Made by a program: the position numbers and the translations under genes
In this document: positions 869-41,260 of the stretch, piece after piece
How the letters are laid out: each line of letters opens with the position of its first letter
Position numbering within the stretch: the stretch's first letter is position 1
The notes under the pieces: generated by a model
The model's input: the letters and a program-made list of their open reading frames with translations, nothing else
Databases searched by the model: none
Told to the model about the DNA's origin: nothing
From: Longitalea luteola
Lineage (GTDB): Bacteria > Bacteroidota > Bacteroidia > Chitinophagales > Chitinophagaceae
Length of the DNA stretch: 64,000 nucleotides
Assembly: GCF_017356035.1 (NCBI RefSeq)
Contig: NZ_JAFIQX010000012.1
Location: 62,001 to 126,000, forward strand
Reading direction: 5' to 3'

Positions 869-917
869 TGGACAGTGGACAGTGGGCAGTTGGCAATTGG
901 CAGTTGGCAATCGGCAA
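869..917. repeat. Heptad repeat array, unit TTGGCAA
   Basis: Seven consecutive 7-nt units of the form TKGRCAR (TGGACAG, TGGGCAG, TTGGCAA, TTGGCAG, TCGGCAA) run in exact register. The array is non-coding. It belongs with the other period-7 arrays of this window but has its own unit. Confidence 0.85.
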
Positions 918-1007
918 ACGTAATCGCGTAAAGTAGGGGTGATTGGCTGGTAACTGGCGACTGCGAACGGGTAGGGGAGTGAACTGTAACCGGCGCCCGG
1001 CACCCCC

Positions 1008-1252
1008 GGCAACTGGTAACTGGTAACCGGTAACTGGCAACTGGTAACCGACAACTGGTAACTGGTAACCGGCAACTGGTAACTGGTAACCGGCAACTGG
1101 TAACTGGTAACCGGTAACTGGTAACCGGTAACCGGCACCCGGCACCCGGGCAACTGGTAACCGGCAACTGGTAACTGGTAACCGGTAACTGGTAACTGGT
1201 AACCGGCATCCGGCACCCGGTAACTGGTAACCGGTAACCGGCAACCGGAAAC
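1008..1252. repeat. Heptad repeat array, unit GGTAACY
   Basis: About 245 bp made of 7-nt units GGTAACT, GGTAACC, GGCAACT and GGCACCC, almost all in register. Because 7 is not a multiple of 3, all minus-strand frames stay open and produce long pseudo-proteins of the type LPVTSYQ repeated; these are artefacts. The array ends about 50 bp before the rplK promoter. Confidence 0.9.
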
Positions 1253-1300
1253 AGCCATCCGGCGTATATTGCAGCTTATTTCAAGGGTATGAAAAAGTAT

Positions 1301-1329
1301 TTGTGGTTTAAAAACTTTTGTTACCTTTG
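1301..1329 (+). promoter_or_regulatory. Bacteroidota promoter of rplKAJL
   Basis: TTG at 1301-1303, an 18-nt spacer and TACCTTTG at 1322-1329 match the Bacteroidota sigma-70 consensus (TTG / TAnnTTTG). The same -7 octamer occurs before rpoB. The expected transcript start is near 1334, leaving an approximately 145-nt leader before rplK. Confidence 0.8.
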
Positions 1330-1355
1330 CGTCCCCAAAAGAAAGTTCTTTCATA

Positions 1356-1408
1356 GTCCGCCGAACATATGTGAAGGCGGAGACTGCCTCCGCTAAAGCT
1401 TCGGCAGT
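1356..1408 (+). promoter_or_regulatory. Structured 5' leader of rplK with competing stems
   Basis: Three overlapping complementarities are visible: TCCGCC (1357-1362) with GGCGGA (1376-1381); GCGGAG (1377-1382) with CTCCGC (1388-1393); and ACTGCC (1383-1388) with GGCAGT (1403-1408). The first two exclude each other. The loop of the second can pair with the third arm, as in an H-type pseudoknot. The AGCTTCGG core also occurs in other intergenic palindromes here, so it may be a repeat-family member rather than a regulator. Confidence 0.4.
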
Positions 1409-1480
1409 TGATAGAATTTGGGAGATCAAGTAGTCAGGCAGACCTGGCGAACCATCGTTTGAACCAATAAATCAGTAAAA

Positions 1481-1924
1481 ATGGCAAAAGAAATTACCGG
1501 CTTCGTAAAGCTACAGGTGAAAGGCGGCCAGGCAAATCCGGCTCCTCCTGTAGGTCCTGCACTGGGTTCCAAGGGTATCAATATCATGGAATTCTGCAAA
1601 CAATTCAACGCCCGCACGCAGGATAAAATGGGAAAAGTTCTCCCTGTGTTGATCACCGTTTATTCCGACAAATCATTCGAGTTTGTAATTAAAACGCCTC
1701 CTGCAGCCGTTCAGTTGCTGGAAGCCGCCAAATTACAAAGCGGTTCTAAAGAACCTAACCGTAATAAGGTTGGTAAAGTGAACTGGAACCAGGTAGAGGC
1801 TATTGCAAAAGACAAAATGCCCGACCTGAATTGTTTCACCCTGGAAAGCGCTATGCGCATGGTGGCTGGTACCGCCCGCAGCATGGGTCTTACCGTAGAC
1901 GGTAAAGCTCCCTGGGAAAATTAA
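1481..1924 (+). CDS. rplK: 50S ribosomal protein L11
   Basis: 147 residues, the normal length for L11. It begins [20 protein letters not shown] and contains the conserved N-terminal [22 protein letters not shown] segment (prolines of the thiostrepton/L7-L12 stalk interface) and the C-terminal rRNA-binding domain ending near [12 protein letters not shown]. It binds 23S rRNA at the GTPase-associated centre and forms the base of the L7/L12 stalk. It is the first gene of rplK-rplA-rplJ-rplL. The usual upstream partners secE and nusG are not present; repeats and a divergent histone-like gene are there instead. The ATG at 1481 fits the family start. There is no Shine-Dalgarno, as expected for Bacteroidota. 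Confidence 0.97.
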
Positions 1925-1969
1925 TTGTTCACTGTTCCCGCAGGGCGGGACATTTAAAAACGAATGACA

Positions 1970-2665
1970 ATGGGAAGAATTCCTAAAAAAAGAAAAGCAG
2001 TTGACGCTAAAGTCGATAAAAATAAAGTGTATTCACTGAAAGAGGCTTCCTCTATCGTGAAAACCGTAAATACTACAAAGTTCGATGCATCGGTAGATCT
2101 TCACATCCGTCTGGGTGTTGATCCTAAGAAAGCCGATCAGGCTATCCGTGGTACTGTTACCCTGCCACATGGTACCGGTAAAACCAAAAGAGTACTGGTA
2201 TTATGTACACCCGATAAAGAAGCTGATGCAAAATCAGCCGGCGCCGATTTTGTTGGCCTGGATGAGTTTGTTCAAAAAATTGAAGGTGGCTGGACTGATG
2301 TAGACGTGATCATCGCTACGCCTTCTGTGATGCCTAAAATTGGTAAACTGGGTAAGATCCTGGGTCCCCGTAACCTGATGCCCAATCCTAAAACAGGTAC
2401 GGTTACCAATGATGTAGCTGCAGCTGTAAACGAGGTAAAAGGCGGTAAGATCGCTTTCAAGGTGGATAAAGCTGGTATCGTTCACGCTTCTATCGGCCGT
2501 GTAAGCTTCAGCCCTGAGAAAATTGCCGAGAACAGCCACCAGCTGATCGATGCGATCATCAAGGCAAAGCCTTCTTCTGCAAAAGGCACTTACCTGAAAA
2601 GCGTATTCATGGCCAGCTCCATGAGTCCTGCTATTGCAGTTGACACAAAATCTTTAATGAACTAA
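1970..2665 (+). CDS. rplA: 50S ribosomal protein L1
   Basis: 231 residues from the ATG at 1970 ([14 protein letters not shown]), which aligns better with L1 N-termini than the in-frame ATG two codons upstream (1964). It contains the L1 signature around [21 protein letters not shown] and the two-domain core. L1 binds helix 76-78 of 23S rRNA to form the L1 stalk that helps release E-site tRNA; in many bacteria it also represses its own L11-L1 mRNA. It follows rplK by 45 nt in the same direction, so co-transcription is very likely. rplJ follows after a 71-nt spacer. Confidence 0.97.
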
Positions 2666-2736
2666 ACTTTAATAACGCGACGATATAGTTACGCCTCCTG
2701 CGTGATTATGAGCGAAACCAACAAAATATTAGCGTT

Positions 2737-3270
2737 ATGACAAAACAGGAAAAAAATGAAGTAATTGAAGTATTGAAAGAGAAATTCTCTCAATACAACA
2801 ATTTCTATGTTACCAATACAGAATCATTAACGGTTGAGCAGGTTGGTAATCTGCGCCGGGTATGTTTCAATAAGAAGGTTGAAATGAAAGTGGCCAAGAA
2901 TACCCTCATTCGCAAAGCCCTCGAAGCTTTGGATGAAAAAAGGTATGCTGGCATGTTCGATTCTCTGCATGGCGTTACCGCTTTGATGTTCAGTGAGAAT
3001 CCCAAAGAGCCTGCACTGATCATCAGCGACTTCCGTAAAGCTGGTAAAAAAGATGCTACCAAGCCCGAACTGAAAGCCGCCTTCATCGATGGCGATGTAT
3101 TCATGGGCGATAATCAACTGCAGACCCTGACCACCCTGAAAAGCAAAAACGACCTTATCGGGGAGATCATTGGCTTGCTGCAATCACCTGCCAAGAATGT
3201 TATCAGCGGCCTGAACGCCGGCAATAAACTGGCAAGCCTGGTGAAAGCATTGGAAGACAGAGCTCAGTAA
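2737..3270 (+). CDS. rplJ: 50S ribosomal protein L10
   Basis: 177 residues, typical of L10 (uL10). The N-terminal rRNA-binding part runs from MTKQEKNEVIEVLKEKF through the conserved LRRVCFNKKVEMKVAKNTLIRKAL segment. The C-terminal helix (about 140-177, ISGLNAGNKLASLVKALEDR) is the site where L7/L12 dimers attach. L10 anchors the stalk to 23S rRNA and, in many bacteria, autoregulates rplJL. An unusually long 205-nt spacer with repeats separates it from rplL, although the two subunits function as one complex. Confidence 0.97.
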   Translation: MTKQEKNEVIEVLKEKFSQYNNFYVTNTESLTVEQVGNLRRVCFNKKVEMKVAKNTLIRKALEALDEKRYAGMFDSLHGVTALMFSENPKEPALIISDFRKAGKKDATKPELKAAFIDGDVFMGDNQLQTLTTLKSKNDLIGEIIGLLQSPAKNVISGLNAGNKLASLVKALEDRAQ

Positions 3271-3475
3271 TTAGCAATTATGCTAATTAGCTAATATGCT
3301 AAAGAGGTTGCCCGATATTCTGAGGATTCAGCATTAAGGTTTTTCATTAGCACATTATCACATTAGCAGATTAGCACATTCAAAATATTAACTCTGGCCT
3401 GAGAGTTATTCAAACACAAATTTTTTTAAACATCCGCCGGAGCACAGGCAATGAAGGCGGGAAAAATTTACAACA
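3271..3475 (+). repeat. rplJ-rplL spacer with period-8 repeat and hairpins
   Basis: Just after the rplJ stop comes a degenerate ATTAGC repeat. A second block near 3348-3380 has 8-nt units (ACATTATC, ACATTAGC, AGATTAGC). A perfect 6-bp hairpin (AACTCT 3390-3395, AGAGTT 3402-3407) and a CCGCC/GGCGG pair lie before rplL. These may form an intercistronic structure adjusting the L10:L12 ratio; that is inference. No promoter of the TTG/TAnnTTTG type is obvious. Confidence 0.55.
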
Positions 3476-3856
3476 ATGGCAGATTTAAAAGCATTTGCAG
3501 AACAGTTGGTAAACCTGACTGTAAAAGAAGTTAACGAGTTAGCTAAGATCCTGAAAGAAGAGTACGGCATTGAGCCTGCTGCTGCTGCTGTAGCTGTAGC
3601 TGCTGGTCCTGCTGCTGGTGGCGGTGCTGCTGCTGCTGAAGAGAAAACTTCTTTCGACGTTATCCTGAAAAACGGTGGCGCTAACAAACTGAACGTAGTG
3701 AAAGTGGTTAAAGAATTAACTGGTCTTGGTCTGAAAGAAGCTAAAGACTTAGTTGATGGCGCTCCAAAACCAGTTAAGGAAGGTATCAGCAAAGCTGATG
3801 CTGACGCTCTGGTTGCCAAGCTGAAAGAAGCTGGCGCTGAAGTGGAAGTTAAGTAA
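3476..3856 (+). CDS. rplL: 50S ribosomal protein L7/L12
   Basis: 126 residues, the usual size. The N-terminal dimerisation domain ([20 protein letters not shown]) is followed by an Ala/Gly-rich hinge (about 38-55) and the C-terminal factor-binding domain with the conserved [20 protein letters not shown] motif (about 82-101). Dimers form the mobile ribosomal stalk that recruits EF-Tu, EF-G, IF2 and release factors. The codons GCT, GGT and GAA dominate, in line with very high expression. In most bacteria rpoB follows directly. Here a strong terminator follows 25 nt after the stop, and rpoB is 6.9 kb away. Confidence 0.97.
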
Positions 3857-3881
3857 TTAGGACTTTCAAACTAGCTATAGA

Positions 3882-3908
3882 CCCCGGTGTTTACACCGGG
3901 GTTTTTTT
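3882..3908 (+). terminator. Rho-independent terminator of rplKAJL
   Basis: A perfect stem of CCCCGGTGT with ACACCGGGG and a 2-nt loop is followed by seven T. It ends the ribosomal-protein operon, so rpoBC cannot depend on simple read-through from rplL. Confidence 0.9.
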
Positions 3909-3985
3909 ATTATATAGGGAAATCAATTTTCGTAACTTTTATTTTCATAGTTTAGTAGTCTCCTTTATATAACATATAATCAAAT

Positions 3986-5020
3986 ATGAAACGGGTCTCC
4001 CTCAAAGATATCGCTCGCATAGCCGGTGTGTCGCCTTCAACCGTATCGTTTGTATTGAATGGCAAGGCGAAACAAATGCGTATCAGTGAAACGCTGGCCA
4101 GTAAGATCATGGAGGTTGCAAAAAAAGAGGGCTATCACCCCAATCCGGTGGCCGTTAGCCTGCGAACCGGTAAATCGCAGATCTTAGGTTTGATCGTAGA
4201 ATCCATATCGGGTAACTTTTTTGCTTCGCTGTCGAGGATCATTGAAGAGGAGGCCGCCCGCTTTGGCTATAAAGTCGTTTATACCAGCACCGAAAACAAC
4301 CGGCAAAAAGGGAAGGAGCTCATAGGAATGCTGTCCCAACGCCAGGTAGACGGCTATATCATCACGCCAACACCCGGCATGGAGCAGGACATTAAGGAGC
4401 TGATCGACGATAACAAACCGGTGGTGCTGATGGATAGCTATTTTCCCGGCATCGATGTGCCCCATGTATTGGTGAACAATTACGAAGGCGTAAAAAAAGG
4501 AATGGGCCACCTGATCGAAAAAGGCTATCGCCGCATTGGTTTTGTAACAGTTGACCTTAACCTGGTGCAAATGGAACAACGCTTGCAAGCGTACCACGAC
4601 TGCATGGAGCAGGAAGCGCTATCTACGGATAACCTGGTGCTCACCCTCAAATATGAAGAAGAAAAAGAGCTCGGTATACAACAGGTGACTTCCTTCATTC
4701 AAAACACACCGGACCTGGAAGCAGTGTTCTTTGCCACAAACTATCTCGGCTTATTAGGGCTGGAAAGTATCCACCGACTGGGGTTGAAGCTGCCAGACGA
4801 CCTGGCAATGATCTGTTTCGATGACCATGATGTTTTCCGCCTGTATCCGCCCGGTATTACCTGCATTCGCCAGCCGGCAGAGGACATTGCAAAAACAGCG
4901 CTGGAATTGCTGATGGATCAGCTGGGCAAAGGAAGTACCAATGGCGAAACAAAGATCCAGATCTCGCCCGGACTGGTGGTCAGAGGCACGACTGAATACG
5001 TTCAGAAAGTAAACAAATAA
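3986..5020 (+). CDS. LacI/GalR-family transcriptional regulator
   Basis: 344 residues, the normal LacI length. The N-terminal helix-turn-helix (residues 3-25) reads VSLKDIARIAGVSPSTVSFV, followed by the hinge-helix region (ISETLASKIMEVAKKEGYHPNPVAVSLRTG). The rest is a periplasmic-binding-protein-like sensor domain (QILGLIVESISGNFF to the C-terminus) that binds a small sugar-like effector. It lies directly upstream of the susC/susD pair on the same strand, 651 nt before susC, so it probably controls their transcription. The operator is not known; a 12-bp palindrome GCAAAATTTTGC at 5058-5069 lies just downstream of its stop. The gene sits between rplL and rpoB, an unusual site for a local carbohydrate regulator. 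Confidence 0.93.
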   Translation: MKRVSLKDIARIAGVSPSTVSFVLNGKAKQMRISETLASKIMEVAKKEGYHPNPVAVSLRTGKSQILGLIVESISGNFFASLSRIIEEEAARFGYKVVYTSTENNRQKGKELIGMLSQRQVDGYIITPTPGMEQDIKELIDDNKPVVLMDSYFPGIDVPHVLVNNYEGVKKGMGHLIEKGYRRIGFVTVDLNLVQMEQRLQAYHDCMEQEALSTDNLVLTLKYEEEKELGIQQVTSFIQNTPDLEAVFFATNYLGLLGLESIHRLGLKLPDDLAMICFDDHDVFRLYPPGITCIRQPAEDIAKTALELLMDQLGKGSTNGETKIQISPGLVVRGTTEYVQKVNK

Positions 5021-10581: not shown

Positions 10582-10587
10582 CCCTCC

Positions 10588-13700: not shown

Positions 13701-14587
13701 ATTACCAGAACGTAAACCCGCTGGGCTGGACTGGCGATGCACAGATCGATGATGCCATCAACACACTGTTGCACAACTACAACATCAAGTACAACGAAGA
13801 ACTGGGTAGATATAAAAGAGAGAAGTTCAACATTTCGATCGGGGACGAATTGCCTGCCGGTGTGTTGAAACTGGCTAAAGTATACCTGGCTGTTAAGCGT
13901 AAGCTGAAAGTGGGTGATAAAATGGCCGGCCGCCACGGTAACAAAGGTATCGTTGCCAAGATCGTGCGTGCTGAAGACATGCCGTTCCTGGAAGACGGAA
14001 CACCGGTTGACATTGTATTGAACCCGCTGGGTGTACCTTCCCGTATGAACCTGGGCCAGATCTATGAAACTGTATTAGGCTGGGCCGGTTTGAAAATGGG
14101 TGTGAAGTTCGCTACGCCGATCTTCGACGGAGCTACTACGGAAGAAATTGCCAAACACATCAACGATGCAGGCTTACCAAGCTTTGGTCATACGTACCTG
14201 TATGACGGTGAAACCGGAGACCGTTTCCACCAGAAAGCTACCGTGGGTGTGATCTATATGATCAAACTGCACCACATGGTTGACGATAAGATGCACGCCC
14301 GTAGCATTGGACCCTACAGTCTTATTACACAGCAGCCGCTGGGTGGTAAAGCACAGTTCGGTGGTCAGCGTTTCGGTGAAATGGAGGTGTGGGCACTGGA
14401 AGCTTATGGTGCTTCGAACATCCTGCAGGAATTGCTCACCATTAAATCGGATGATATTATCGGCCGTGCAAAAACCTACGAGGCGATTGTTAAAGGTGAT
14501 AATATTCCAAGAGCGGGTATTCCTGAGTCGTTCAACGTATTGGTGCATGAATTAAGAGGTTTGGGTCTGGATCTCAAGTTTGAGTAA
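10784..14587 (+). CDS. rpoB: DNA-directed RNA polymerase subunit beta
   Basis: 1267 residues from the ATG at 10784 ([17 protein letters not shown]), which matches the usual Bacteroidota N-terminus; the open frame extends 18 codons upstream to a TTG, which is not favoured. Recognisable parts are the protrusion/lobe ([22 protein letters not shown]), the rifampicin region ([40 protein letters not shown] in outline), the flap and the C-terminal clamp segment ([22 protein letters not shown]). It forms the catalytic core of RNA polymerase with RpoC. It has its own promoter rather than sharing the rplJL transcript. rpoC follows after 126 nt containing an inverted repeat. Confidence 0.97.
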
Positions 14588-14690
14588 GATTTTGAGATTT
14601 ATAGATTTTGGGATTTCGGGATTTAAAATCCAGAAATCTCAAAATCGCGAAATCAGAAATCGGAATTCAGCGGGATTCAAACAATTTTAA
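14588..14690 (+). repeat. Inverted and heptad repeat between rpoB and rpoC
   Basis: Starting at the base after the rpoB stop, GATTTTGAGATTT (14588-14600) and its exact complement AAATCTCAAAATC (14634-14646) form a 13-bp stem. The interior contains a second perfect GGATTT/AAATCC stem and period-7 units (GGATTTC, GGGATTT). Further GAAATC copies continue to about 14690. There is no T-tract, so this is more likely an intercistronic processing or pausing element than a terminator. Confidence 0.75.
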
Positions 14691-19141: not shown

Positions 19142-19735
19142 ATGAAAAATATCTCTACTATATTATCTATTCTCGCTCTTGTGCTCATAGGTGTGCTATT
19201 TTATTTTCAATTCTCTAAGGGGGAAACAAAGAAAAAAGTGGTGGCGCCTGCCGATAAAAATGAACCTACCCATTTCGCTATAGCCTATTTTGACATTGAT
19301 TCGCTGCAGGAACATTACGAATATTTCAAGGATGTGTCGGGCGATATCAAGAAGAAAGAGAATGCCATGAACGCTGAATTGAACGATTTAACGAACAAGT
19401 ACCAGCGCACCATTCGTAAATGGCAGGAAAAAGGCAATAACATTACGCAATCGGAAGGCGAGCAGGCCCAGCGCGAAGTAGGTATGCTGCAACAGCAATA
19501 CCAGCAACGCAAAGGCGAACTGGAGCAGGAAATGCAAAAGCTGCAGGTTGACCGTATGACCGAACTGCGCAAACAGGTAGAAGAGTTTTTAAAAGAGTAC
19601 AACAAATCGAAGAAATACTCTTACATCCTTTCTTACGAGCCAGGCTTTATTATCTATTACAAAGATTCTGCGTATAACATTACCGGTGATTTGATAGCAG
19701 GGCTGAATTCGCAGTATAAAGAGAAGAAAAAGTAA
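19142..19735 (+). CDS. OmpH/Skp-like periplasmic chaperone-type protein
   Basis: 197 residues. A hydrophobic N-terminal segment (about 4-24, ISTILSILALVLIGVLFYFQ) is a signal anchor or uncleaved signal. The mature part starts with the OmpH-type strand FAIAYFDIDSLQEHYEYF (about 47-64). It continues with a long Gln/Glu/Lys-rich coiled coil (about 68-150, including LQQQYQQRKGELEQEMQKLQ) and ends with a beta strand region (YSYILSYEPGFIIYYKDS). This is the layout of Skp/OmpH proteins that bind unfolded outer-membrane proteins. The membrane anchor instead of a cleavable signal is common in Bacteroidota homologues. It stands alone between two terminators. Confidence 0.85.
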   Translation: MKNISTILSILALVLIGVLFYFQFSKGETKKKVVAPADKNEPTHFAIAYFDIDSLQEHYEYFKDVSGDIKKKENAMNAELNDLTNKYQRTIRKWQEKGNNITQSEGEQAQREVGMLQQQYQQRKGELEQEMQKLQVDRMTELRKQVEEFLKEYNKSKKYSYILSYEPGFIIYYKDSAYNITGDLIAGLNSQYKEKKK

Positions 19736-19805
19736 TGTGATAATGTGATAATGTGATAATTCGATAATTGATCCGGAAGATACCGCAGTGTCTTCCGGAT
19801 TTTTT
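19736..19805 (+). terminator. Period-8 repeat and terminator after ompH-like gene
   Basis: The stop codon merges into an 8-nt repeat (GATAATGT twice, then GATAATTC and GATAATTG) up to 19770. Then ATCCGGAAGA (19771-19780) pairs with TCTTCCGGAT (19791-19800), followed by a T-run. Confidence 0.85.
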
Positions 19806-19990: not shown

Positions 19991-21457
19991 ATGGCAGAAC
20001 ACGCTTCATCATTCAAACCATCACTTAGTTTGCTCGATGCTACCATGGTGGTAGCTGGTTCTATGATCGGCTCGGGTATCTTTATCGTTAGCTCCGATAT
20101 TACCCGCAACGTAGGCAGCGCCGGCTGGATGATCGCCGTATGGCTCATCACCGGCTTTATGACCATTACTGCCGCCGTAAGTTATGGTGAGCTGAGTGGT
20201 ATGTTCCCAAAAGCGGGCGGACAATACGTATACCTGAAAGAAGCATTTAATCCATTGGCGGGGTTCTTATACGGCTGGAGCTTTTTTTCGGTGATACAAA
20301 CTGCCACCATAGCTGCGGTGGCCGTAGCGTTCAGCCGGTTTACTGCCAAACTGATACCCTGGTTCAGCGAAAGCCATAAGCTGTGGGGAATAGAAAAAGG
20401 ACTGAATGCACAGGGGATAATGGAATATTCATTTTCCATCAGTGCCGCACAGTTGCTGGCCATCGCGCTCATTGTATTTCTTACCTATACCAATACAAAA
20501 GGCATTAAGGGCGGAAAGATCATTCAAACGTCCTTCACTACCGTAAAACTGCTGTCGTTATTCGGTTTGATCATTCTGGGTTTCTTGCTGGTAAAAGAAA
20601 GCTTGTGGGCTGAGAACTGGCAAACCGGAATGAATGCCACGCAGCTGGAACAGGACGCCCAGGGTAATTTCATCCAAGGCGGTGAATGGCTGCCCATAGG
20701 CGGTACCGCCCTCATTGGTGCCATTGCAGCTGCCATGGTGGGCTCCATCTTCAGCAGCGACAGCTGGAACAACGTAACTTTCATTGCCGGTGAAATAAAG
20801 AATCCAAAAAGAAATATCGGGTTGAGCCTTTTCCTGGGCACGCTGATAGTGACCGTCATTTATGTAACAGCCAACCTGATGTACCTGAATGTACTGCCTT
20901 TAAGCCATATAGCGTATCCGGAGGGGGAGCGGGTGGCAACAGCTGCGGCTACTTCCATCTTTGGTGAAAATGGCGCTTATGTAATAGCCGTAATGATCAT
21001 GATCTCCACTTTTGGTTGCAACAACGGATTGATCCTGGCGGGCGCCCGGGTATATTATACCATGGCCAAGGATGGCCTGTTCTTCAAACAAACCGGTGTA
21101 TTGAATAAGAATGCGGTGCCTGAGTTTGCCCTGTGGATCCAGTGTGGTATGGCCAGCATTTTATGTTTGAGCGGCGGGTATGGCGACCTGCTGGATATGA
21201 TCTCCTTTGTAGTGGTGCTGTTTTATGCGCTCACCATCCTGGGCATTTTCGTATTGCGCAAAAAACGTCCGGATGCTGAGCGGCCCTATAAGGCTTTCGG
21301 CTTCCCGGTATTGCCCATTATTTATATAATTCTGGCCCTTACATTTTGCATTTTTCTCATTAAAATGAAGCCACAATATGCCGGTATAGGGCTGGCAATT
21401 GTTTTGATAGGTGTTCCTTTATATTATATTGCAGTGCGAAAAAGCAAAGTCGCATAG
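19991..21457 (+). CDS. APC-superfamily amino acid permease
   Basis: 488 residues with about 12 hydrophobic segments. The first segment carries the APC signature (LLDATMVVAGSMIGSGIFIVSSDI, about 14-37), followed by AGWMIAVWLITGFMTITAAVSYGELSGMFPKAGGQYVYL, typical of the L-type/LAT family. It is an inner-membrane amino acid or polyamine transporter; the substrate cannot be told. A hydrophilic insert near 208-228 (QTGMNATQLEQDAQGNF) lies between helices 6 and 7. A heptad repeat begins at its stop codon. A weak TATCTTG box about 40 nt before the ATG may be the promoter. Confidence 0.92.
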   Translation: MAEHASSFKPSLSLLDATMVVAGSMIGSGIFIVSSDITRNVGSAGWMIAVWLITGFMTITAAVSYGELSGMFPKAGGQYVYLKEAFNPLAGFLYGWSFFSVIQTATIAAVAVAFSRFTAKLIPWFSESHKLWGIEKGLNAQGIMEYSFSISAAQLLAIALIVFLTYTNTKGIKGGKIIQTSFTTVKLLSLFGLIILGFLLVKESLWAENWQTGMNATQLEQDAQGNFIQGGEWLPIGGTALIGAIAAAMVGSIFSSDSWNNVTFIAGEIKNPKRNIGLSLFLGTLIVTVIYVTANLMYLNVLPLSHIAYPEGERVATAAATSIFGENGAYVIAVMIMISTFGCNNGLILAGARVYYTMAKDGLFFKQTGVLNKNAVPEFALWIQCGMASILCLSGGYGDLLDMISFVVVLFYALTILGIFVLRKKRPDAERPYKAFGFPVLPIIYIILALTFCIFLIKMKPQYAGIGLAIVLIGVPLYYIAVRKSKVA

Positions 21458-21505
21458 TTACAGGTTACAGGGCCTTGTAACCTGCAACATGTAACCTGGA
21501 ACAAA
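21457..21505. repeat. Heptad repeat array, unit GTTACAG / GTAACCT
   Basis: GTTACAG twice, a 6-nt spacer, then GTAACCT, GCAACAT, GTAACCT and GGAACAA. The two halves are partly complementary (GTTACAGG with CCTGTAAC-like bases), so the array can also fold. It starts at the last base of the permease stop. Confidence 0.75.
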
Positions 21506-22508: not shown

Positions 22509-22700
22509 AACGCAGAACGCTTAACGCAGAACGCTTAACGCGGAACGCCATACGCAGAACCTGCCTGCCGGCCTTGTTCGCCGAAGCTTCGCGAAGGCGC
22601 AGCAGGCAGGCGCTTAACGCAAATAGCCGAATACATTCGACCAGCTCTCATAACTGGCAACTGTGAACTTTGACCTGTGAACTGTGAAACCCGAACGCAG
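22509..22700. repeat. Heptad arrays interrupted by a long palindrome
   Basis: Directly after the rfaE1 stop, 7-nt units AACGCAG, AACGCTT and AACGCGG run to 22559. A 51-bp hairpin follows (CCTGCCTGC 22560-22568 with GCAGGCAGG 22602-22610, CGAAGCTTCG near its centre), then the AACGC array resumes to 22626. A different array, AACTGTG units, fills 22652-22700 and ends two bases before the next gene's ATG. The palindrome looks inserted into the AACGC array. Confidence 0.8.
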
Positions 22701-23566: not shown

Positions 23567-23576
23567 TTTGCGTTAT

Positions 23577-23672
23577 AGGCTGAAGGCTGAAGGCTGAAGG
23601 CTGAAGGCTAAAGGCTGAGGGCTAAAGGCTAAAGGCTTCAGCCTATGCTACAGCTTCGGCGGACGTAGCAAG
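23577..23672. repeat. Heptad array (AGGCTGA) plus GCTAC/GTAGC hairpin
   Basis: Units AGGCTGA, AGGCTAA and AGGCTGAGG start 11 nt after the kinase gene's stop. The array is followed by a hairpin GCTAC (23647-23651) / GTAGC with AGCTTCGGCGG in the loop. The same unit, in the reverse orientation, follows the minus-strand dapA gene at 25021-25099. Confidence 0.8.
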
Positions 23673-23824: not shown

Positions 23825-24736
23825 ATGCTGGCTGTAACGATCCTGGGAAATAATTCAGCGCTGCCGGCCTATGACCGGCATCCCACGTCGCAGGTAGTGA
23901 CGTTGGATGACAATTTATTCCTGGTGGATTGTGGAGAAGGCACGCAGCAGCAATTGGCCAAATACCGCATTCGCTGGTCACGCATCAATTATATTTTCAT
24001 TTCTCACCTGCACGGCGATCATTATTTTGGTTTACCCGGATTTTTGCATAGCATGGGTTTGCTGCATCGCGAGCATGACCTGCATTTGTTTGCCCCGGCG
24101 CCTTTAAAGCAGATCCTTGACCTGCAACTGGAAGCCGCCTCCAATGTATTGCCCTACACGCTGCATTTTCATCCGCTGGAAGGAGAGGGTGTGATTGTTC
24201 AGAACGATAAGTTCAAAGTAACCTGTTTTGCCACCAAACACCGCATACCCTGCTGGGGTTTCCGGTTCGACCAGGTGCGGGCGCCCCGGCGAGTGAACCC
24301 CGAGAAAGCCATTGAATATGGCGTTCCGGCTGCTTTTTACGACCGGTTAAAATGGGGAGCCGATTATACCAATAAGAACGGCGAACTCATCAGGAACGAA
24401 TGGGTGACCAATCCCGGCGCCAAGCCTTTATCATACGCATACAGTGCCGATACCATTTTTGATGAATCCCTCATAGAGAAGTTCAGCGGCGTAGATCTGT
24501 TATACCACGAAACCACTTACTTAAAAGAACTGGATAAAAGAGCCGCACTGCGCTTTCATTCCACTACAACACAAGCCGCCTGCATAGCCAAACAGGCCAA
24601 AGTAGGCCGACTACTCATCGGGCATTTCAGCTCGAAATATGACAAGCTGGAAGTGTTTGAGCAGGAAGCTTGTGAAGTGTTTCCTGATACCAGTCTGGCC
24701 TTGGAAGGAGTGACTTTTAGAGCGATACAACGATGA
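23825..24736 (+). CDS. rnz: Ribonuclease Z
   Basis: 303 residues, normal for bacterial RNase Z. The metallo-beta-lactamase zinc motif HLHGDH lies near residue 60 (FISHLHGDHYFGLPGFLHSM). The substrate-binding and second metal motifs follow, including FATKHRIPCWGFRF, SYAYSADTIFDESL, LLYHETTYL and HSTTTQAACIAKQAKVGRLLIGHFSSKY. It removes the 3' trailer of tRNA precursors, making the end to which CCA is added. The N-terminus MLAVTILGNNSALPAYDRHPT is the expected beta strand, so the ATG at 23825 fits. A heptad repeat begins at its TGA. Confidence 0.95.
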   Translation: MLAVTILGNNSALPAYDRHPTSQVVTLDDNLFLVDCGEGTQQQLAKYRIRWSRINYIFISHLHGDHYFGLPGFLHSMGLLHREHDLHLFAPAPLKQILDLQLEAASNVLPYTLHFHPLEGEGVIVQNDKFKVTCFATKHRIPCWGFRFDQVRAPRRVNPEKAIEYGVPAAFYDRLKWGADYTNKNGELIRNEWVTNPGAKPLSYAYSADTIFDESLIEKFSGVDLLYHETTYLKELDKRAALRFHSTTTQAACIAKQAKVGRLLIGHFSSKYDKLEVFEQEACEVFPDTSLALEGVTFRAIQR

Positions 24737-24951
24737 ACGCTTAACGCAAAACGCCCAACGCGGAACGCCCAACGCAAAACGCCCAACGCCGGACGCTGAA
24801 CGCGGAACGCAAAACGCAAGCGCCCAACGCAAAACGTCTGAACGCTGAATGCCAAACGCGGAACGCTGAATGCCAAACGCAAAATGCGGAACGCTGAATG
24901 CCAAACGCAAAATGCGGAACGCTTACGCTAAAGCTTCGGGGGCGAAGCAAC
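24736..24951. repeat. Heptad array (AACGCNN), rnz downstream region
   Basis: About 195 bp of 7-nt units AACGCGG, AACGCAA, AACGCCC, AACGCTG and AATGCCA, starting at the last base of the rnz stop codon. Longer-period copies (AACGCTG-AATGCCA-AACGCAA blocks) occur near the end, a sign of later block duplication. It closes with a GCTTCG/CGAAGC hairpin near 24932-24951. Open frames on the minus strand here are artefacts. Confidence 0.9.
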
Positions 24952-25020: not shown

Positions 25021-25099
25021 GCCTCAGCCTTTGGCCTTCAGCTTTGAGCCTTGGGCCTTAAGCCTTATGTCTTCAGCTTTGAGCCTTGTGCCTTAAGCC
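25021..25099. repeat. Heptad array (CCTTAAG / CTTTGAG), dapA 3' end
   Basis: Exact period 7: CCTTCAG, CTTTGAG, CCTTGGG, CCTTAAG, CCTTATG and so on. On the dapA strand this reads as AAGGCTTAAGGC-type units and overlaps the dapA stop codon at 25093-25095. It belongs to the same unit family as 23577-23640. Confidence 0.85.
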
Positions 25100-25977
25100 T
25101 TTTTCAAAAATGCTTTCACTTTTTCATGCAATCCTTCACTCAACGGCACCATCGGCAGTCGCAGGTAATTTTCGAGTAGGTTCAACTCGGTCATGAATGC
25201 TTTGACCCCGGCGGGATTGTTTTCAGCAAACATCAGATCATAGGCTTCAATCAGCACATCGTTCAACGACTTGGCTGCTTTGAAATCGCCTTTCAGGCAC
25301 TGGCGCACCATGTGTGTGAACTGTTGCGGGAAGGCATTGGCAGCTACGCTGATCACGCCATCCATACCACAGGCAATTTGCGGTAATACCAGGGCATCAT
25401 CGCCACTGACCACCAGGAAATTTTCAGGACGGTCGCGCAGGATCTGCATACACTGGGCCATATCGCCGCTGGCTTCTTTTATACCACCGATATTAGCCAC
25501 TTCATTGGCGAGGCGCAGGGTAGTGGCTGCCGTCATATTGCGACCGGTACGGCCTGGCACATTATACAACAAAATAGGTTTCGGTGAAGCGGCAGCAAGC
25601 GCTTTATAATGCAGGAAAATACCTTCCTGGGAGGGTTTGTTATAATAAGGGCTGGCGCTTAAAACAGCAGTGGCTTTATCTAACGGAAAAGATTCCAGTT
25701 CTTTAATTACTTCAGGCGTATTGTTGCCGCCAATGCCTACTACCACCGGTACCCGGTTATTCACTTTTTCGTAGGTAAAGCGAATGATAGCGATCTTTTC
25801 TTCTTTGCTGAGACAGGGAGTTTCGCCGGTAGTGCCCAAAGTAACCACATATTCAGCGCCACCATTGATAACGAAATCTATGATCTTGCTTAAAGCATCG
25901 AGATCAACTTCTGAGTTTGATTTGAAGGGGGTGACCAGCGCCACGCCGGTGCCGTATAATGATTGACGAAGAGACAT
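25093..25977 (-). CDS. dapA: 4-hydroxy-tetrahydrodipicolinate synthase
   Basis: 294 residues, typical length. The motifs are GVALVTPFKSNSEVDLDAL at the N-terminus, TLGTTGETPCLSKEE (substrate carboxylate-binding Thr pair), SPYYNKPSQEGIFLHYKALA (catalytic Tyr) and GIKEASGDMAQCMQIL (Schiff-base Lys). It condenses pyruvate with aspartate semialdehyde, the first committed step to diaminopimelate and lysine. The start MSLRQSLYGTGVALVTPF agrees with the family. accA lies upstream on the same strand with a 188-nt gap that contains a short GGCGGAAAAG/CTTCCCGCC-type stem, so the two may be separately expressed. Confidence 0.96.
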   Translation of the reverse strand: MSLRQSLYGTGVALVTPFKSNSEVDLDALSKIIDFVINGGAEYVVTLGTTGETPCLSKEEKIAIIRFTYEKVNNRVPVVVGIGGNNTPEVIKELESFPLDKATAVLSASPYYNKPSQEGIFLHYKALAAASPKPILLYNVPGRTGRNMTAATTLRLANEVANIGGIKEASGDMAQCMQILRDRPENFLVVSGDDALVLPQIACGMDGVISVAANAFPQQFTHMVRQCLKGDFKAAKSLNDVLIEAYDLMFAENNPAGVKAFMTELNLLENYLRLPMVPLSEGLHEKVKAFLKKA

Positions 25978-34640: not shown

Positions 34641-34648
34641 CGAATTGT

Positions 34649-37698: not shown

Positions 37699-40600
37699 TT
37701 AGCGTTTCAATAAATTGAACAGCAGTTGCTGGCCAACTATATTAGCACTATTCTTTTGTGAATTATTGAATGTTGTCATAGAAGCGTTCTCCCCATCACC
37801 TTCCGCTTTCTTTTCCGGCTTTATATCTTTTATGCAGGAAAATATATCCAGCGCGCATAAAATGATCTTGCCCCTGCCATGTGGTACGATTTGTAACGCT
37901 GAAAAAACTTCGGGTTTGTGATCCGACACACAAGCCACTACACATTCGCCGGTGTTCAGGCGCAAACCCAGCCGGTTCTTGTTATAAGTAGCAAAACACT
38001 GGTATTCCCAGTTAAATACACTGGACTGGGGAAGTCCTGCCAGCAAGGCATGCTGTTTGGAAAAATAATTGCCACCATACCACGATCTTCCCAATTCTTT
38101 TGGGCCGCGGTAATCGAGCACTTCTTTTTTGGCCAGGTGCCCGGCCCATTGTTCTACGTTATTGACTACAATAAGCGTATGCCCATTGTTTACCCATTCC
38201 AGGATATCCGTTACCAGCGGATTGCCGGTTTGTTGTGGTTCAAAGGCGCCTACGACTAAAATGCTGCCCTGCGGCCTTCCGTTGCGGTAGTTTTCAAACC
38301 GGTTCAAGCCGGCGCTCTTAAAAAAGTTGCTCAAAACGCCACTGGTATCGGCGATCATTCCGTGTTGCGGGATGCCAGTCGTATTGAGTTGTACGGCATA
38401 CAATTGATCTTCGCCAGTGGCTATGGAGGTGCGTCCATTCATTAACCGGGCAGTAATGGTAGTATAGCCCGGAGCTGCAGCCGTTAATTGGTTACCTGCT
38501 GACAATAGCTGTCCGTACACAATACCGCCTTCAACTTCCACGGGAATGGTTTTATGAAAAACTGATTTACCGGTTGCGTTACGGGCAGTGACCTCAAGAT
38601 TATACTTGCCCTGGATGTTTTTTTCATTGATCAAATAAAAGTCCATCGTCGTACTATCACCTACAGCCAGCACTTTGCGATTGAGCTTTACGGCCACAAA
38701 CAGAGGCTGATTGTATTTGGCAATCAGGTCAGCATCGCCTTTGAGGTTGCGGTAGTTATCTACGATGCCTGAATGGTTTTCTAGCTTCATGCTTTCCCAG
38801 CCATTCACGGCATAGCCGTCGATCGTATTGTTGATACGCACGTTTTCAATTATGCGTCCCTGATAGTAATAAGCTACATTGCCCATTTTACGGGTAAGGC
38901 TGTCTACATTGGGAAAGGCTTTGCTGAAGCCATTGTTTTTCAGGAATGCATCATACGCCTCGTACCATTTCAGGTAGCTGGCGGTTTCCCAGCCTATATC
39001 TTTTCCTCTCTTGAGAATGGCATCGCGAATGAGCTGTAAACGGGGCGGGGTGCCAATCGCTCCTTCTTCGCCATAGTAAATGACCTCGTCTTTGTGGTCG
39101 GTATATTTTGCGTAGTGGGTAGGGTCATTGTATAAATTGTCGTGATATACGCCGGGTCCGCCCGCATGGTGCTGATCGAACCAGCCATAATCATAGAAAG
39201 TGGTATCGTAAGGCAACAGGTGCAGTTTGAATTTAGGATCGGGTTCATTGAGTTTAATATTGCCGTTGCAGGAATTGTAGGTAATGATGCGGCTGTTGTC
39301 GAGCCTGTGCCCGGCCATCATTTGCTGGCGGTCTACTGTTTGCGGTAACGCACCGCGTTCATTGTGCATATTGTAGATGACCAGTGAAGGATGGCTGCGG
39401 TCGCGGCGGATCAACCGCAGGAATTTTTCGGTTCGGGCAGTGAGATAAAAGGCTGTTTGTTTTCTTTCCAGGTCGTTTTTGGGATTGAACAGGTTTTCGG
39501 GATACGAATTGCCACCGGGTTCTTCGAAATATAAAAGCCCCAGTTCATCTGCATAATCGAGCACATTGCGTTGGCCGATGGCGCGGTGAAAATTGAGCAT
39601 GTTCAGCCCAAGTTTTTTAGCATTGCGGATTTGTTTTTTAGCCAGTTCATCAGAGGGAGTTAAACCGTTTTCGGGCCAGAAGCCCCAGGAAATAGCCGTG
39701 CGTAAAACAATGCGTCTATTGTTGAGGTAGAATTGCCGGTCGCCTGCAATATCTTTTACTTCGAACCAGCGGAAACCGAAACGTTGCGAACAACTGTCGG
39801 CTGAGCCGCTGCCTTCCCAACGTACGGTGGCTATATACAGGTTCGGACTATCGACATTCCATAATTTAGCAGCCGGTAATTTTACCGTAATGGTTTTGGT
39901 GGACGCGCCCGGCGCTATTTGTTGACCGGTCAGTACCTGCTGATAGACCTGTCTTTTAGCGGCTCCTGCTTCCCGAATGTCAATAAAGTATTTGCCAGTG
40001 GCTGTTGTTGCGCCGGTATTTTGTGTGCTTAGCTGAACATCTACTTCTGTGATGGCAGGTTTGTTCTTAATAAATATATCATCAATGAATACATGATCCG
40101 TAGCTACCATTTTTACTTTGCCGGTAATGCCGCCAAAACCATGGCCAGGCTGGGTGCGGTAGATACCCCACATAAAGTTCTGGCTGTCGCGCCAGTCGAA
40201 ATTGCCATTGGGATCAGTAATGCGGATGGCAATTTCATTGGTGCCGCACTGTATGGCTTTGGTCATATCTACTTCGAACGGCGTGCCAGGAATAATATCA
40301 TAGCCGCACAATTTTCTGTTCACAAATACCTCGGCGCGAAAGCGCACGCTTTCAAATTGTAATACGATCCTTTTGGAGCGCATGCTTTGTGGTATTGCTA
40401 TATGAGTAGTAAACCACGACACACCCAGGTAATTGCCCGCCAGGCCAAAGCTGTTTCCATTACGGCCCCAGTAATATTCTTCTACCGTAGCGGGCAAATG
40501 AACAATACGGCCGTTGGCTGACTGGAGCGCTTTCCAGCCGCCGGTGGGTTCGTGAACGGGTAACCGGGTGATATCAACTGGCGGCGTATATAAGGAATCA

Positions 40601-40746
40601 TTTTCCCAGGTGGCCGCGGTATCGAGCCATAATTTCCAGTCGTTTTTCGATAGGTCATTCTCCTGCCTGCCTTTTTGCTGTGCTATTCCTTTTGTAGTAA
40701 GCAGGATACCGATAATCCAGATTGGCAGTGCCCGTTTAATTAGCAT
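37699..40746 (-). CDS. Secreted glycoside hydrolase family 2 protein
   Basis: 1015 residues. A signal peptide (about 1-22, LPIWIIGILLTTKGIAQ) is followed by a GH2 sugar-binding domain (VEEYYWGRNGNSFGLAGNYLGVSWFTTHIAIP; VQFESVRFRAEVFVNRKLCG-type strands), an immunoglobulin-like domain and a TIM barrel beginning near FGFRWFEVKDIAGDRQFYLNNRR. The likely acid/base is in SLVIYNMHNERGALP (Asn-Glu). A possible nucleophile is the Glu pair in IYYGEEGAIG. C-terminal beta domains (about 690-1015) end the protein. GH2 enzymes are beta-galactosidases, beta-glucuronidases or beta-mannosidases; which one cannot be told. No susC/D is adjacent. Confidence 0.88.
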   Translation of the reverse strand: MLIKRALPIWIIGILLTTKGIAQQKGRQENDLSKNDWKLWLDTAATWENDSLYTPPVDITRLPVHEPTGGWKALQSANGRIVHLPATVEEYYWGRNGNSFGLAGNYLGVSWFTTHIAIPQSMRSKRIVLQFESVRFRAEVFVNRKLCGYDIIPGTPFEVDMTKAIQCGTNEIAIRITDPNGNFDWRDSQNFMWGIYRTQPGHGFGGITGKVKMVATDHVFIDDIFIKNKPAITEVDVQLSTQNTGATTATGKYFIDIREAGAAKRQVYQQVLTGQQIAPGASTKTITVKLPAAKLWNVDSPNLYIATVRWEGSGSADSCSQRFGFRWFEVKDIAGDRQFYLNNRRIVLRTAISWGFWPENGLTPSDELAKKQIRNAKKLGLNMLNFHRAIGQRNVLDYADELGLLYFEEPGGNSYPENLFNPKNDLERKQTAFYLTARTEKFLRLIRRDRSHPSLVIYNMHNERGALPQTVDRQQMMAGHRLDNSRIITYNSCNGNIKLNEPDPKFKLHLLPYDTTFYDYGWFDQHHAGGPGVYHDNLYNDPTHYAKYTDHKDEVIYYGEEGAIGTPPRLQLIRDAILKRGKDIGWETASYLKWYEAYDAFLKNNGFSKAFPNVDSLTRKMGNVAYYYQGRIIENVRINNTIDGYAVNGWESMKLENHSGIVDNYRNLKGDADLIAKYNQPLFVAVKLNRKVLAVGDSTTMDFYLINEKNIQGKYNLEVTARNATGKSVFHKTIPVEVEGGIVYGQLLSAGNQLTAAAPGYTTITARLMNGRTSIATGEDQLYAVQLNTTGIPQHGMIADTSGVLSNFFKSAGLNRFENYRNGRPQGSILVVGAFEPQQTGNPLVTDILEWVNNGHTLIVVNNVEQWAGHLAKKEVLDYRGPKELGRSWYGGNYFSKQHALLAGLPQSSVFNWEYQCFATYNKNRLGLRLNTGECVVACVSDHKPEVFSALQIVPHGRGKIILCALDIFSCIKDIKPEKKAEGDGENASMTTFNNSQKNSANIVGQQLLFNLLKR

Positions 40747-40955
40747 GTATATGAGATATTTTATATTGGTAGAAGAAAATAGTATGACAGACGCTACTTT
40801 TTCACGTCAATCGTCATTGAATCGGCAATGGTTCCGCAAAACTATTTTAGATGTTTGGGAAGGGGATAAATATTTAACCTAATAGGTTTAATTTCTGGTT
40901 AATTGGATAAATTGGGACGTAAGCTTTGATGAGTTGGCAGCTGGATAGTTGATGT

Positions 40956-41060
40956 GGTGACTGGTGAATGGTCAATGGTGAGTGGTGAATGGTGAATGGT
41001 CAATGGTCAATGGTCAATGGTGAATGGTCAATGGTGAATGGTCAATGGTCAATGGTGAGT
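40956..41060. repeat. Heptad array, 15 units of GGTSAAT
   Basis: Exactly 105 bp: 15 units GGTGACT, GGTGAAT, GGTCAAT and GGTGAGT without a register slip. It is non-coding and lies between the GH2 start (minus strand, 40746) and the ligD 3' end. 40747-40955 shows no gene. Confidence 0.92.
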
Positions 41061-41079
41061 GGCTCGCGCAGTTTTAAAC

Positions 41080-41260
41080 CTTCCGACTTCCGGCCTCAGA
41101 CTTCCGACTTCGGACCTCCGACTTCGGACCTCCGACTTCGGACCTCCGACTTCGGCCTCAGACTTCCGACTCCGGCCTCAGACTTCCGACCTCCGACTTC
41201 GGACTTCCGACTTCCGACATCCGGCCTCCGGCTTCCGACTTCGGACCTCCGACTTCCGGC
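41080..41260. repeat. Heptad array (TTCCGAC / TTCGGAC) ending at the ligD stop codon
   Basis: About 180 bp of 7-nt units TTCCGAC, TTCGGAC, CTCCGAC and CTCAGAC, with two 1-nt slips. On the ligD strand the array begins on the very next base after the TAG. Open plus-strand frames here (RLPTSDL repeats) are artefacts. Confidence 0.92.

What the first reader, a model, noticed from the sequence alone, without database searches (positions are those of the whole stretch)
869..41260. A genome-wide style of period-7 intergenic arrays, each with its own unit, anchored at stop codons
At least eleven non-coding arrays have an exact or near-exact 7-nt period (two have 8): 869-917, 1008-1252, 3348-3380, 14588-14690, 19736-19770, 21457-21505, 22509-22700, 23577-23640, 24736-24930, 25021-25099, 40956-41060 and 41080-41260. 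Units differ completely (GGTAACY, AACGCNN, AGGCTGA, GGTSAAT, TTCSGAC), but period and position are shared: nine start at or within about 12 nt of a stop codon (rplJ, rpoB, ompH-like, permease, rfaE1, kinase, rnz, dapA, ligD). Heptamer repeats (STRR) are known in cyanobacteria. I know of no described equivalent that is 3'-end anchored with locus-specific units in Bacteroidota.
Basis: partly seen in the sequence, partly recalled or inferred. Interest (0 to 1): 0.75.

Follow-up and report, generated by a model that had tools for sequence, protein, structure and literature searches.

The report
Polarised seven-letter repeats between bacterial genes
This bacterium fills many of the gaps between its genes with arrays of seven- or eight-letter DNA repeats that often start right where a gene stops and usually point away from the gene; related arrays were already known in other bacteria, but the pointing rule and the fast turnover make their origin a testable puzzle.

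Summary
The arrays are real and genome-wide. In 1.26 Mb sampled, spacer autocorrelation stands clearly above shuffles only at 7, 8, 14 and 21; 302 intergenic 7/8-nt arrays were analysed, none of period 5 or 6. 108 of 340 array edges lie within 10 nt of a stop codon; 34 expected.

Units read outward from the nearest gene edge, stop or start alike, in every spacer class (212 of 246 family-assigned arrays), and 111 of 302 have a reverse-complement partner nearby (13 when permuted). At the same spacer, related species carry different units or none, beside stops that in four genes end at the same place in all nine species.

A similar strand rule is published for one G-rich heptamer in Xanthomonas and Nostoc (PMC4692102), so this is a new variant of a known kind. 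RNA hairpins cannot be the common function: two long arrays folded alone did no better, or worse, than shuffles. I favour a non-adaptive, DNA-level spreading process limited by selection at gene edges; the enzyme is unknown. An association with an IS200-like transposase (14 of 15 versus 23 of 56 genomes) is only a lead.

The parts
880..917 (.). period-7 array, CAGTTGG-like, not at a gene end
   Evidence: TRF
1006..1252 (-). GGTTACC-family array (TRF 35 copies; family sense on minus strand), in the rplK-start half of a divergent spacer and reading away from that start
3268..3302 (+). TAATTAGC (8-nt) array whose first unit contains the rplJ stop codon
   Evidence: a worn copy in G001, GATTT-type in G002/G003/G004, none in G005/G007/G008/G009 (read)
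3345..3380 (-). reverse-complement partner of the 3268 array
   Evidence: partner score 12.0; fold of 3268-3380 z -2.8
14587..14624 (+). GATTTNNR (8-nt) array on the rpoB stop, left arm of a hairpin
   Evidence: partner score 17; fold of 14585-14690 z -7.0
14642..14670 (-). right arm (AAATC) of the rpoB-rpoC hairpin
   Evidence: the spacer in 8 relatives has GATTT-type (G005, G009), TTTATGG-type (G002) or no array
19733..19772 (+). TAATGTGA (8-nt) array starting with the ompH-like stop codon, followed by a terminator-like hairpin and T-run (read by eye)
21457..21503 (+). GTTACAG hairpin array from the permease stop to shortly before the next gene
   Evidence: z -2.2; same type in G002, G003, G005, G007, G009, not in G001, G004, G008 (read)
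22509..22560 (+). AACGCNN array starting right after the PfkB (rfaE1-like) stop
   Evidence: AAGTTNNT hairpins in G003 and G008, other or none elsewhere (read)
22659..22688 (-). AAAGTTC-family array, reverse orientation, before the fructosamine kinase start
23577..23637 (+). AAGGCTG array 10 nt after the fructosamine kinase stop, in a spacer whose content differs in all nine species
   Evidence: fold of 23577-23660 z -2.8, partner score only 7
24735..24923 (+). AACGCNN array (27 unit lengths) from the tRNase Z-like stop
   Evidence: its first 124 nt fold worse than all 200 shuffles, z +3.15; partner score 12.5, just over threshold
25026..25102 (-). AAGGCNN array overlapping the dapA stop (convergent gene)
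40955..41062 (+). GGTNAAT (AATGGTS) array
   Evidence: fold z +0.5
41080..41258 (-). AAGTCNG array 2 nt from the ligD stop
   Evidence: no such unit in the 30 nt after the stop of the best matches in seven relatives

Best explanation
The arrays are polarised intergenic repeats: a lineage-specific, largely non-adaptive class of 7/8-nt repeat DNA that repeatedly arises in, replaces and is lost from the unconstrained part of spacers. Most arrays belong to one of about a dozen genome-wide unit families (a 4-5 nt core plus 2-3 looser positions), and the sense strand reads 5' to 3' from the nearest gene edge into the spacer, so that a spacer with arrays on both sides carries a sense array on the left and a reverse-complement one on the right. 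The stop-codon anchor is where selection stops the repeat: array sequence is accepted up to about the second base of the stop codon, as long as a stop remains. Shown: periods, families, polarity, partners, conserved gene ends at several sites, turnover between species. Inferred: that the process acts on DNA rather than through RNA function, that it extends 3' ends or nascent strands away from the gene edge (slippage, template switching or end extension), followed by duplication of multi-unit blocks, and that selection sets the boundary. The enzyme is not identified.
For: Autocorrelation excess above 0.015 at lags 7, 8, 14 and 21 only; no TRF spacer array of period below 7. Edge excess at stops 108 of 340 vs 34 expected, starts 20 of 264 vs 16.6. 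In-phase match to the array consensus is 0.49 and 0.52 at the second and third base of the stop (0.30 over all phases) and at most 0.38 vs 0.27 further upstream. rplJ, rpoB, the ompH-like gene and fructosamine kinase end at the same residue position in nine of nine species, with and without arrays. Outward polarity 212 of 246 family-assigned arrays, 147 of 153 within 30 nt of an edge (largest of 2000 coin-flip runs: 163 and 110); by fifths of the spacer on the plus strand 67:3, 39:1, 21:16, 9:30, 1:59; divergent spacers 25:4; arrays without partner (score <8) 88:14. Label-free: G-richer strand outward 206 vs 79 in G000, 33 vs 11 in G003, 19 vs 4 in six Mucilaginibacter loci. Reverse-complement partner 111 of 302 vs 13 permuted, 18 of 48 vs 0 in G003. 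Turnover at orthologous spacers. Two long arrays folded alone gave z +0.5 and +3.15. Density falls from convergent 2.34/kb to divergent 0.66/kb, as expected if promoters leave less free space.
Against: Non-adaptive origin is inferred; no expression or mutation data were available. Plain slippage from a local seed is not well supported: identical units are 0.9 to 3.4 times as frequent within an array as between arrays of a family, and partner arms of one spacer are no more alike (0.096) than arms of different spacers (0.106). Yet 11 of 12 families are more alike within, so local duplication does play a part. The sense of each family was named after looking at stop-adjacent arrays; start-edge arrays were not used for it, and the G-skew version needs no names. 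In the rnz, dapA, permease and PfkB genes the last few residues vary between species, so the repeat may have touched coding sequence there. Four of six folded stretches do fold well (z -2.2 to -7.0). Smaller samples are weaker: G001 C11 gives 4 stop contacts vs 1.5 expected (maximum 5) and G-out 12 vs 8; Mucilaginibacter stop contact 6 vs 3.3 (maximum 9); the unnamed-pair orientation test is 2600:868 in G000 and 15:4 in Mucilaginibacter but 31:25 in G003 and 3:2 in G001.
Confidence: 0.45

Rival explanations
1. Ordinary slipped-strand microsatellites: any short motif in a free spacer expands by polymerase slippage; 7-8 nt is favoured because shorter loops are repaired or because of polymerase footprint; no polarity mechanism is needed.
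For: Block duplications are visible (28-nt unit 97% at 24854-24923, 35-nt unit 88% at 25026-25102); identical units are more frequent within arrays than between for 11 of 12 families; periods 14 and 21 echo 7. The polymerase idea is in print (PMC4692102 discussion).
Against: Twelve families cover 253 of 321 arrays; polarity 212 of 246, reverse-complement partners and weak within-array likeness are not predicted by local slippage.
Confidence: 0.25
2. Functional RNA elements: inverted arms make hairpins just after the stop that protect mRNA ends, separate cistrons or help termination.
For: Four of six folded stretches fold better than shuffles (14585-14690 z -7.0; 21455-21505 z -2.2; 3268-3380 z -2.8; 23577-23660 z -2.8). 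Several lie between neighbouring genes of one direction such as rplJ-rplL and rpoB-rpoC. Convergent spacers are densest.
Against: The GGTNAAT array alone (40956-41061) folds no better than shuffles (z +0.5) and the first 124 nt of the AACGC array (24737-24860) fold worse than all 200 (z +3.15). Partner arms show no extra likeness beyond family membership. Polarity holds in divergent spacers. Arrays are absent at the same spacer in close relatives.
Confidence: 0.15
3. Mobile or transposase-shaped elements: a domesticated Y1 (IS200-like) transposase spreads or trims palindromic array DNA, as REP-associated transposases are thought to do for REPs.
For: Genomes whose sampled locus has an array with a reverse-complement partner carry a strong Y1_Tnp match in 7 of 7 vs 3 of 16 others (p 0.0005, found by looking) and 7 of 8 vs 20 of 40 in a test noted before its results (p 0.055). 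All 9 genus genomes searched have one strong match, behind the same upstream gene, and by eye the spacer before it holds an array in 8 of 9.
Against: The protein fails the curated REP-transposase cut-off (23 vs 80) and misses the IS200 one narrowly (54.6 vs 55). One array-positive genome (G068) lacks it and 23 without paired arrays have it. Kinship and genome size are not controlled; at 3 Mb and above p is 0.051. One gene hardly explains a dozen families.
Confidence: 0.1
4. Mis-called gene ends: arrays rich in stop codons invade genes and create the stop they seem anchored to.
For: Stops occur in phase with the real stop 2.8 times as often as in other phases (0.169 vs 0.060) and 27 of 340 edges lie more than 3 nt inside the ORF. 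The last residues of rnz, dapA, permease and PfkB differ between species.
Against: In rplJ, rpoB, the ompH-like gene and fructosamine kinase the end is at the same residue position in nine of nine species, including species without an array there.
Confidence: 0.05

Closest known systems
GGGAATC / GGGGA(C/T)T heptamer repeats of Xanthomonas and Nostoc (PMC4692102)
   Same: Period 7, intergenic, abundant genome-wide, mostly 0-50 bp after stops on the coding strand and before starts on the non-coding strand, no bias in gene function, length and sequence variation between close species, inverted repeats mentioned.
   Different: One G-quadruplex-capable unit type there; here a dozen unit families of 7 and 8 nt, most of other composition, and replacement of one unit by another at orthologous spacers. 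There most repeats sit between the same genes in two species.
TAACTGA heptamer repeats in Beggiatoaceae, cyanobacteria and five Bacteroidetes (PMC4679880)
   Same: Intergenic heptamer direct repeats, long arrays in some Bacteroidetes, present or absent between close relatives; in Flexibacter litoralis sets before starts are forward and the one set after a stop is reverse, which fits the outward rule.
   Different: Single unit, mostly just upstream of start codons; unit not among the families here.
Cyanobacterial short tandemly repeated repetitive sequences (STRR; recalled, not read here)
   Same: Heptamer arrays in intergenic DNA.
   Different: Other units and phylum; edge polarity not known to me.
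REP / REPIN elements with REP-associated tyrosine transposases (search listing with abstract starts only)
   Same: Extragenic, palindromic, high copy number, a Y1 transposase in the genome.
   Different: REPs are 20-40 nt palindromes, most with a GTAG or CGTC tag; no 7/8-nt period is mentioned; the transposase here fails the family cut-off.

Membership tests
Polarised G-rich heptamer repeats (Xanthomonas/Nostoc type) | dominant period 7 in intergenic DNA | tested here: met
   autocorrelation and TRF, (8 is a second period)
Polarised G-rich heptamer repeats (Xanthomonas/Nostoc type) | coding strand after stops, non-coding strand before starts | tested here: met
   (G001 sample not significant)
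Polarised G-rich heptamer repeats (Xanthomonas/Nostoc type) | unit GGGAATC or GGGGA(C/T)T able to form G-quadruplexes | tested here: not met
   family consensus units are other sequences; G4 formation itself not tested
TAACTGA repeats | unit TAACTGA close to start codons | tested here: not met
   units; excess contact is with stops, not starts
REP / RAYT system | transposase scoring above the curated REP_Tyr_transpos cut-off | tested here: not met
   23.1 bits vs 80
REP / RAYT system | palindromes with a conserved tetranucleotide tag (GTAG/CGTC) | not tested
   no tag search was run; 8-mer counts in flanks gave no word common to all families
Slippage microsatellite | units within an array much more alike than between arrays | tested here: inconclusive
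   identical units 0.9 to 3.4 times as frequent within arrays; more within for 11 of 12 families
Slippage microsatellite | length polymorphism between strains of one species | not testable with these tools
   nearest genome held is another species (91% identity over 14 genes)

The most novel reading that the evidence does not exclude
A trans-acting, partly templated process adds 7/8-nt units to DNA 3' ends at gene edges, somewhat as telomerase does at chromosome ends: both sides of a spacer can get the same family, units look close to independent draws (fixed core, loose positions), the G-richer strand points outward, and no near-identical copy was found for the two arrays I searched for. It would act in at least Bacteroidota, and by the published Xanthomonas and Nostoc data perhaps in three phyla.
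Probability: 0.06. Interest if true: 0.9.

Novelty: new variant of a known kind. Interest (0 to 1): 0.52.

Why it matters
Heptamer excess in bacterial genomes was noted in 2007 and had no accepted cause in 2015 (as told in PMC4692102). A simple geometric rule (units read away from the gene edge, at stops and starts alike, with many units that are not G-rich) argues against G-quadruplexes as the general reason and tells any future model what it must explain. The species of this genus, with different units at the same spacer next to conserved gene ends, make origin and loss directly countable.

Tried and rejected
Stop-codon function (arrays as multi-frame stops): stop density is higher in sense than antisense at stops (0.081 vs 0.055, shuffled 0.064), but GTTACCG, AAGTCGG and CAATGGT units carry none and starts show the same polarity. 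NHEJ as the cause: Ku is in 32 of 32 genomes searched, arrays or not. Reverse transcriptase: 22 of 32 genomes, absent in array-rich Mucilaginibacter pankratovii. Array copying between loci: no near-identical long copy for two arrays (85% over 214 nt, 89% over 111 nt, 100% over 31 nt; 79% over 186 nt, 88% over 56 nt), but the tool scored only 40 of 206 and 40 of 148 candidates. Fold-back copying of one arm from the other, and selection for pairing: arms of one spacer are no more alike than arms of different spacers. Terminator origin of the units: suggested by a shared core hairpin at the rnz-dapA spacer of G002, G003, G004, G007 and G009 (read), not tested genome-wide. Cognate-array idea for the Y1 gene: its upstream array is GGTNAAT-type in G000, G001, G002, G004, G008, which are rich in that family, and CGNCAAT-type in G003, G005 and G007, but counts of the second family in the samples were too low to judge. 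The control (pattern read backwards) is not empty in this genus because another family fits it.

Rows dropped: spacers under 30 nt; 19 of 321 arrays with midpoint inside a called gene; 68 of 321 arrays that fit no family (left out of family orientation counts, kept in G-skew counts); 17 of 302 arrays with equal G and C (left out of G-skew counts). L015 and L017 were not held for genome searches; L023, L046, L049, L060, L073, L083, L085 were not analysed for arrays. Gene calls are my own hexamer-based script, not a standard annotator. Families were defined by core words chosen after reading stop-adjacent arrays, so core versus variable positions are partly built in; the family-free test shows a weaker version (sorted positional conservation 0.96 to 0.51 against 0.94 to 0.66 under a uniform null, 93 arrays).
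Full report
What was checked. TRF and direct reading confirm period-7 or period-8 arrays at all twelve listed intervals and add one at 3268-3302.

Where it is. The window is part of a 7.3 Mb, 43-contig genome. Its RpoC is 94% identical to Paraflavitalea pollutisoli and a Pseudobacter MAG and 93% to a Niastella MAG, so it is most likely a member of Chitinophagaceae. I took three 400-kb runs of the same genome, called genes with my own hexamer script, and analysed 763 spacers of at least 30 nt, 216 kb.

Genome-wide spectrum. Spacer autocorrelation is 0.303 at lag 7, 0.285 at 8, 0.294 at 14 and 0.287 at 21, against about 0.263 in dinucleotide shuffles; other lags exceed shuffles by about 0.010 or less; coding DNA shows the period-3 signal only. 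TRF finds 349 arrays in spacers, 10 in shuffles and 50 in 1.05 Mb of coding sequence; base periods in spacers are 7 (153), 8 (83), 14 (34), 16 (11), 21 (10) and scattered others, and none below 7.

Position. Of 321 period-7/8 arrays, 302 are intergenic. Edges within 10 nt of a stop: 108 of 340 (random placement in the same spacer: mean 34, maximum 47 in 200 runs); within 10 nt of a start: 20 of 264 (mean 16.6). Density per kb of spacer is 2.34 convergent, about 1.5 co-directional and 0.66 divergent. The second refutation test is passed. The end of the stop codon is in phase with the array: agreement with the in-phase consensus begins at the second base of the stop. ORF calling does not explain this in four window genes: rplJ, rpoB, the ompH-like gene and fructosamine kinase end at the same residue position in nine of nine species, whether or not an array follows, for example LKFE* for RpoB; in permease, PfkB, rnz and dapA the last few residues vary, so there the repeat may have touched the coding end.

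Unit families. The units are not locus-specific. Twelve families (TAATNNGM, GATTTNNR, AGTTRACN and AGTTNTTN with period 8; AACGCNN, AAGGCNN, ARGTCNG, AGTTYAN, AATGGTS, RGTTRCM, CAATNGN, GTTTRTN with period 7) hold 253 of 321 arrays. The 1008-1252 array has 43 other matches in the genome and the 24737 array 40; none is a near-identical long copy (85% over 214 nt, 89% over 111 nt and 100% over 31 nt; 79% over 186 nt and 88% over 56 nt), though only 40 of 206 and 40 of 148 candidates were scored.

Polarity. At stops (within 15 nt) the family sense strand is the coding strand in 104 of 107 cases; before starts (within 60 nt) it is the non-coding strand in 57 of 60 (summed over families). Both facts are one rule: reading from the nearest gene edge into the spacer, 5' to 3', gives the sense unit, in 212 of 246 arrays and 147 of 153 within 30 nt of an edge (coin-flip maxima 163 and 110 in 2000 runs). 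It holds in convergent (67:7), co-directional and divergent (25:4) spacers and for arrays without a partner (88:14). Sense was named after reading stop-adjacent arrays, so I repeated it without names: the G-richer strand points outward in 206 of 285 arrays of this genome (p 3e-14), 33 of 44 in G003, 19 of 23 in six Mucilaginibacter loci, and 12 of 20 in G001 (not significant). A pairwise test without names gave 2600:868 in this genome and 15:4 in Mucilaginibacter, but only 31:25 in G003 and 3:2 in G001.

Partner arms. A reverse-complement match to the array lies within 150 nt in 111 of 302 arrays against 13 with permuted arrays; the same for direct copies is 35 against 16. Period-8 arrays have one most often (60 of 98). 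In the window the threshold is met at 3268, 3345, 14587 and, barely, 24735. G003, a single-contig genome of the same genus, repeats this (18 of 48 against 0) and the stop anchor (19 against 5.1, maximum 13). In six Mucilaginibacter loci 20 of 24 arrays have a partner, though the stop contact there is not significant (6 against 3.3, maximum 9).

Turnover. Eight same-genus genomes with 86-91% nucleotide identity to this one over 14 shared genes show, in orthologous spacers, different units or none. rplJ-rplL: TAATTAGC in G000 and worn in G001, GATTT-type in G002, G003 and G004, nothing in G005, G007, G008, G009. rpoB-rpoC: GATTT in G000, G005 and G009, TTTATGG in G002, none in the other five. 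After the fructosamine kinase stop, 0 to about 120 nt of unrelated sequence sits between conserved flanks, by eye a clear 7-nt array in two of nine species. These are readings of the printed spacers, not scores. Outside the genus, sampled loci of Chitinophaga, Sphingobacterium and Pedobacter have 0 to 2 arrays each, while four of six Mucilaginibacter loci have 4 to 6.

What it most likely is. I read the arrays as repeat DNA that spreads and disappears in the free part of spacers, with gene-edge selection fixing where it ends. Against an RNA role for all: four of six folded stretches fold well (z -7.0, -2.2, -2.8, -2.8), but the GGTNAAT array alone does not (z +0.5) and the first 124 nt of the AACGC array fold worse than all 200 shuffles (z +3.15). 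Against simple slippage alone: identical units are 0.9 to 3.4 times as frequent within an array as between arrays of a family, and arms of one spacer are no more alike than arms of different spacers. Some block duplication is clear. The outward rule suggests extension of DNA 3' ends away from the gene, but no enzyme is identified: Ku is universal in the set (32 of 32) and reverse transcriptases do not track the arrays.

A lead. A strong Y1 (IS200-like) transposase match is present in 7 of 7 named genomes whose locus has an array with a partner and in 3 of 16 without. A test written in the notebook before its results gave 7 of 8 against 20 of 40 (p 0.055); counting weak or partial matches as present makes it 7 of 8 against 24 of 40 (p 0.14). 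Kinship and genome size are not controlled. In this genus the gene follows the same upstream gene in 9 of 9 species and by eye has an array in front of it in 8 of 9, but it misses the curated cut-offs for REP and IS200 transposases.

Literature. PMC4692102 (passages and two sections read) reports the same positional and strand preference for a G-rich heptamer in Xanthomonas and Nostoc and no known function. PMC4679880 (abstract and section 10 read) reports TAACTGA heptamers in five Bacteroidetes. PMC4060949 was searched for passages only. Eight paper searches showed, among the 10 to 20 rows listed each, no paper on such arrays in Chitinophagaceae or Mucilaginibacter; the held library lacks most subscription journals.

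Verdict. Observation confirmed, interpretation partly supported. It is a new variant of a known kind: intergenic heptamers, here with many unit families, a clear edge polarity, reverse-complement partners and fast turnover.

Noticed in passing
window 22561-22612: GC-rich palindromic insert (CCTGCCTGCCGGC...GCAGGCAGGC) interrupts the AACGC array region; words such as CTGCCGGC are found in the 3' flank of 5-6 of 25 AACGC arrays, so it looks like a separate dispersed element.
   Followed up: no
window 19733-19772 and other TAATGTGA arrays: TAATGTGA arrays share 3' flank words (GAATACAG in 5, AAATACAG in 6 of 49 arrays), which could hint at descent from a common element.
   Followed up: partly
window 23567-23576: Ten bases after the fructosamine kinase stop (TTTRCGTTAT) are conserved in all nine species, directly before a spacer whose content differs in every species.
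   Followed up: no
L229 1352-1902 (G000:C39) and L257-L264: Y1 transposase-like gene with the HUH motif in place (read by eye), behind a DAHP-synthase/chorismate-mutase-like gene and, in G000, before an aroB-like gene (gene names recalled from reading the sequence); one strong match in each of 9 genus genomes searched.
   Followed up: partly
rpoB-rpoC spacer of G001, G004, G008 (L160, L161, L162): These three share a block (GAACGTTGAAG..GCGACGCAACGGA..GATGAAAAGGGTTACTGTCGCCGGTAAC) where others have arrays; similar GTGAGTGACACAACG blocks recur in the 25978 spacer of several species, so another dispersed repeat may exist.
   Followed up: no
genomes G000-G005, G007-G009: All nine searched genus genomes carry two Ku matches, 22 of 23 other genomes carry one; all nine also have a reverse transcriptase with an open frame of 507-529 aa.
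   Followed up: no
window 1-270 (minus): Low-complexity coding repeats (12- and 75-nt periods), resembling a lysine/alanine-rich histone H1-like protein (recalled resemblance).
   Followed up: no
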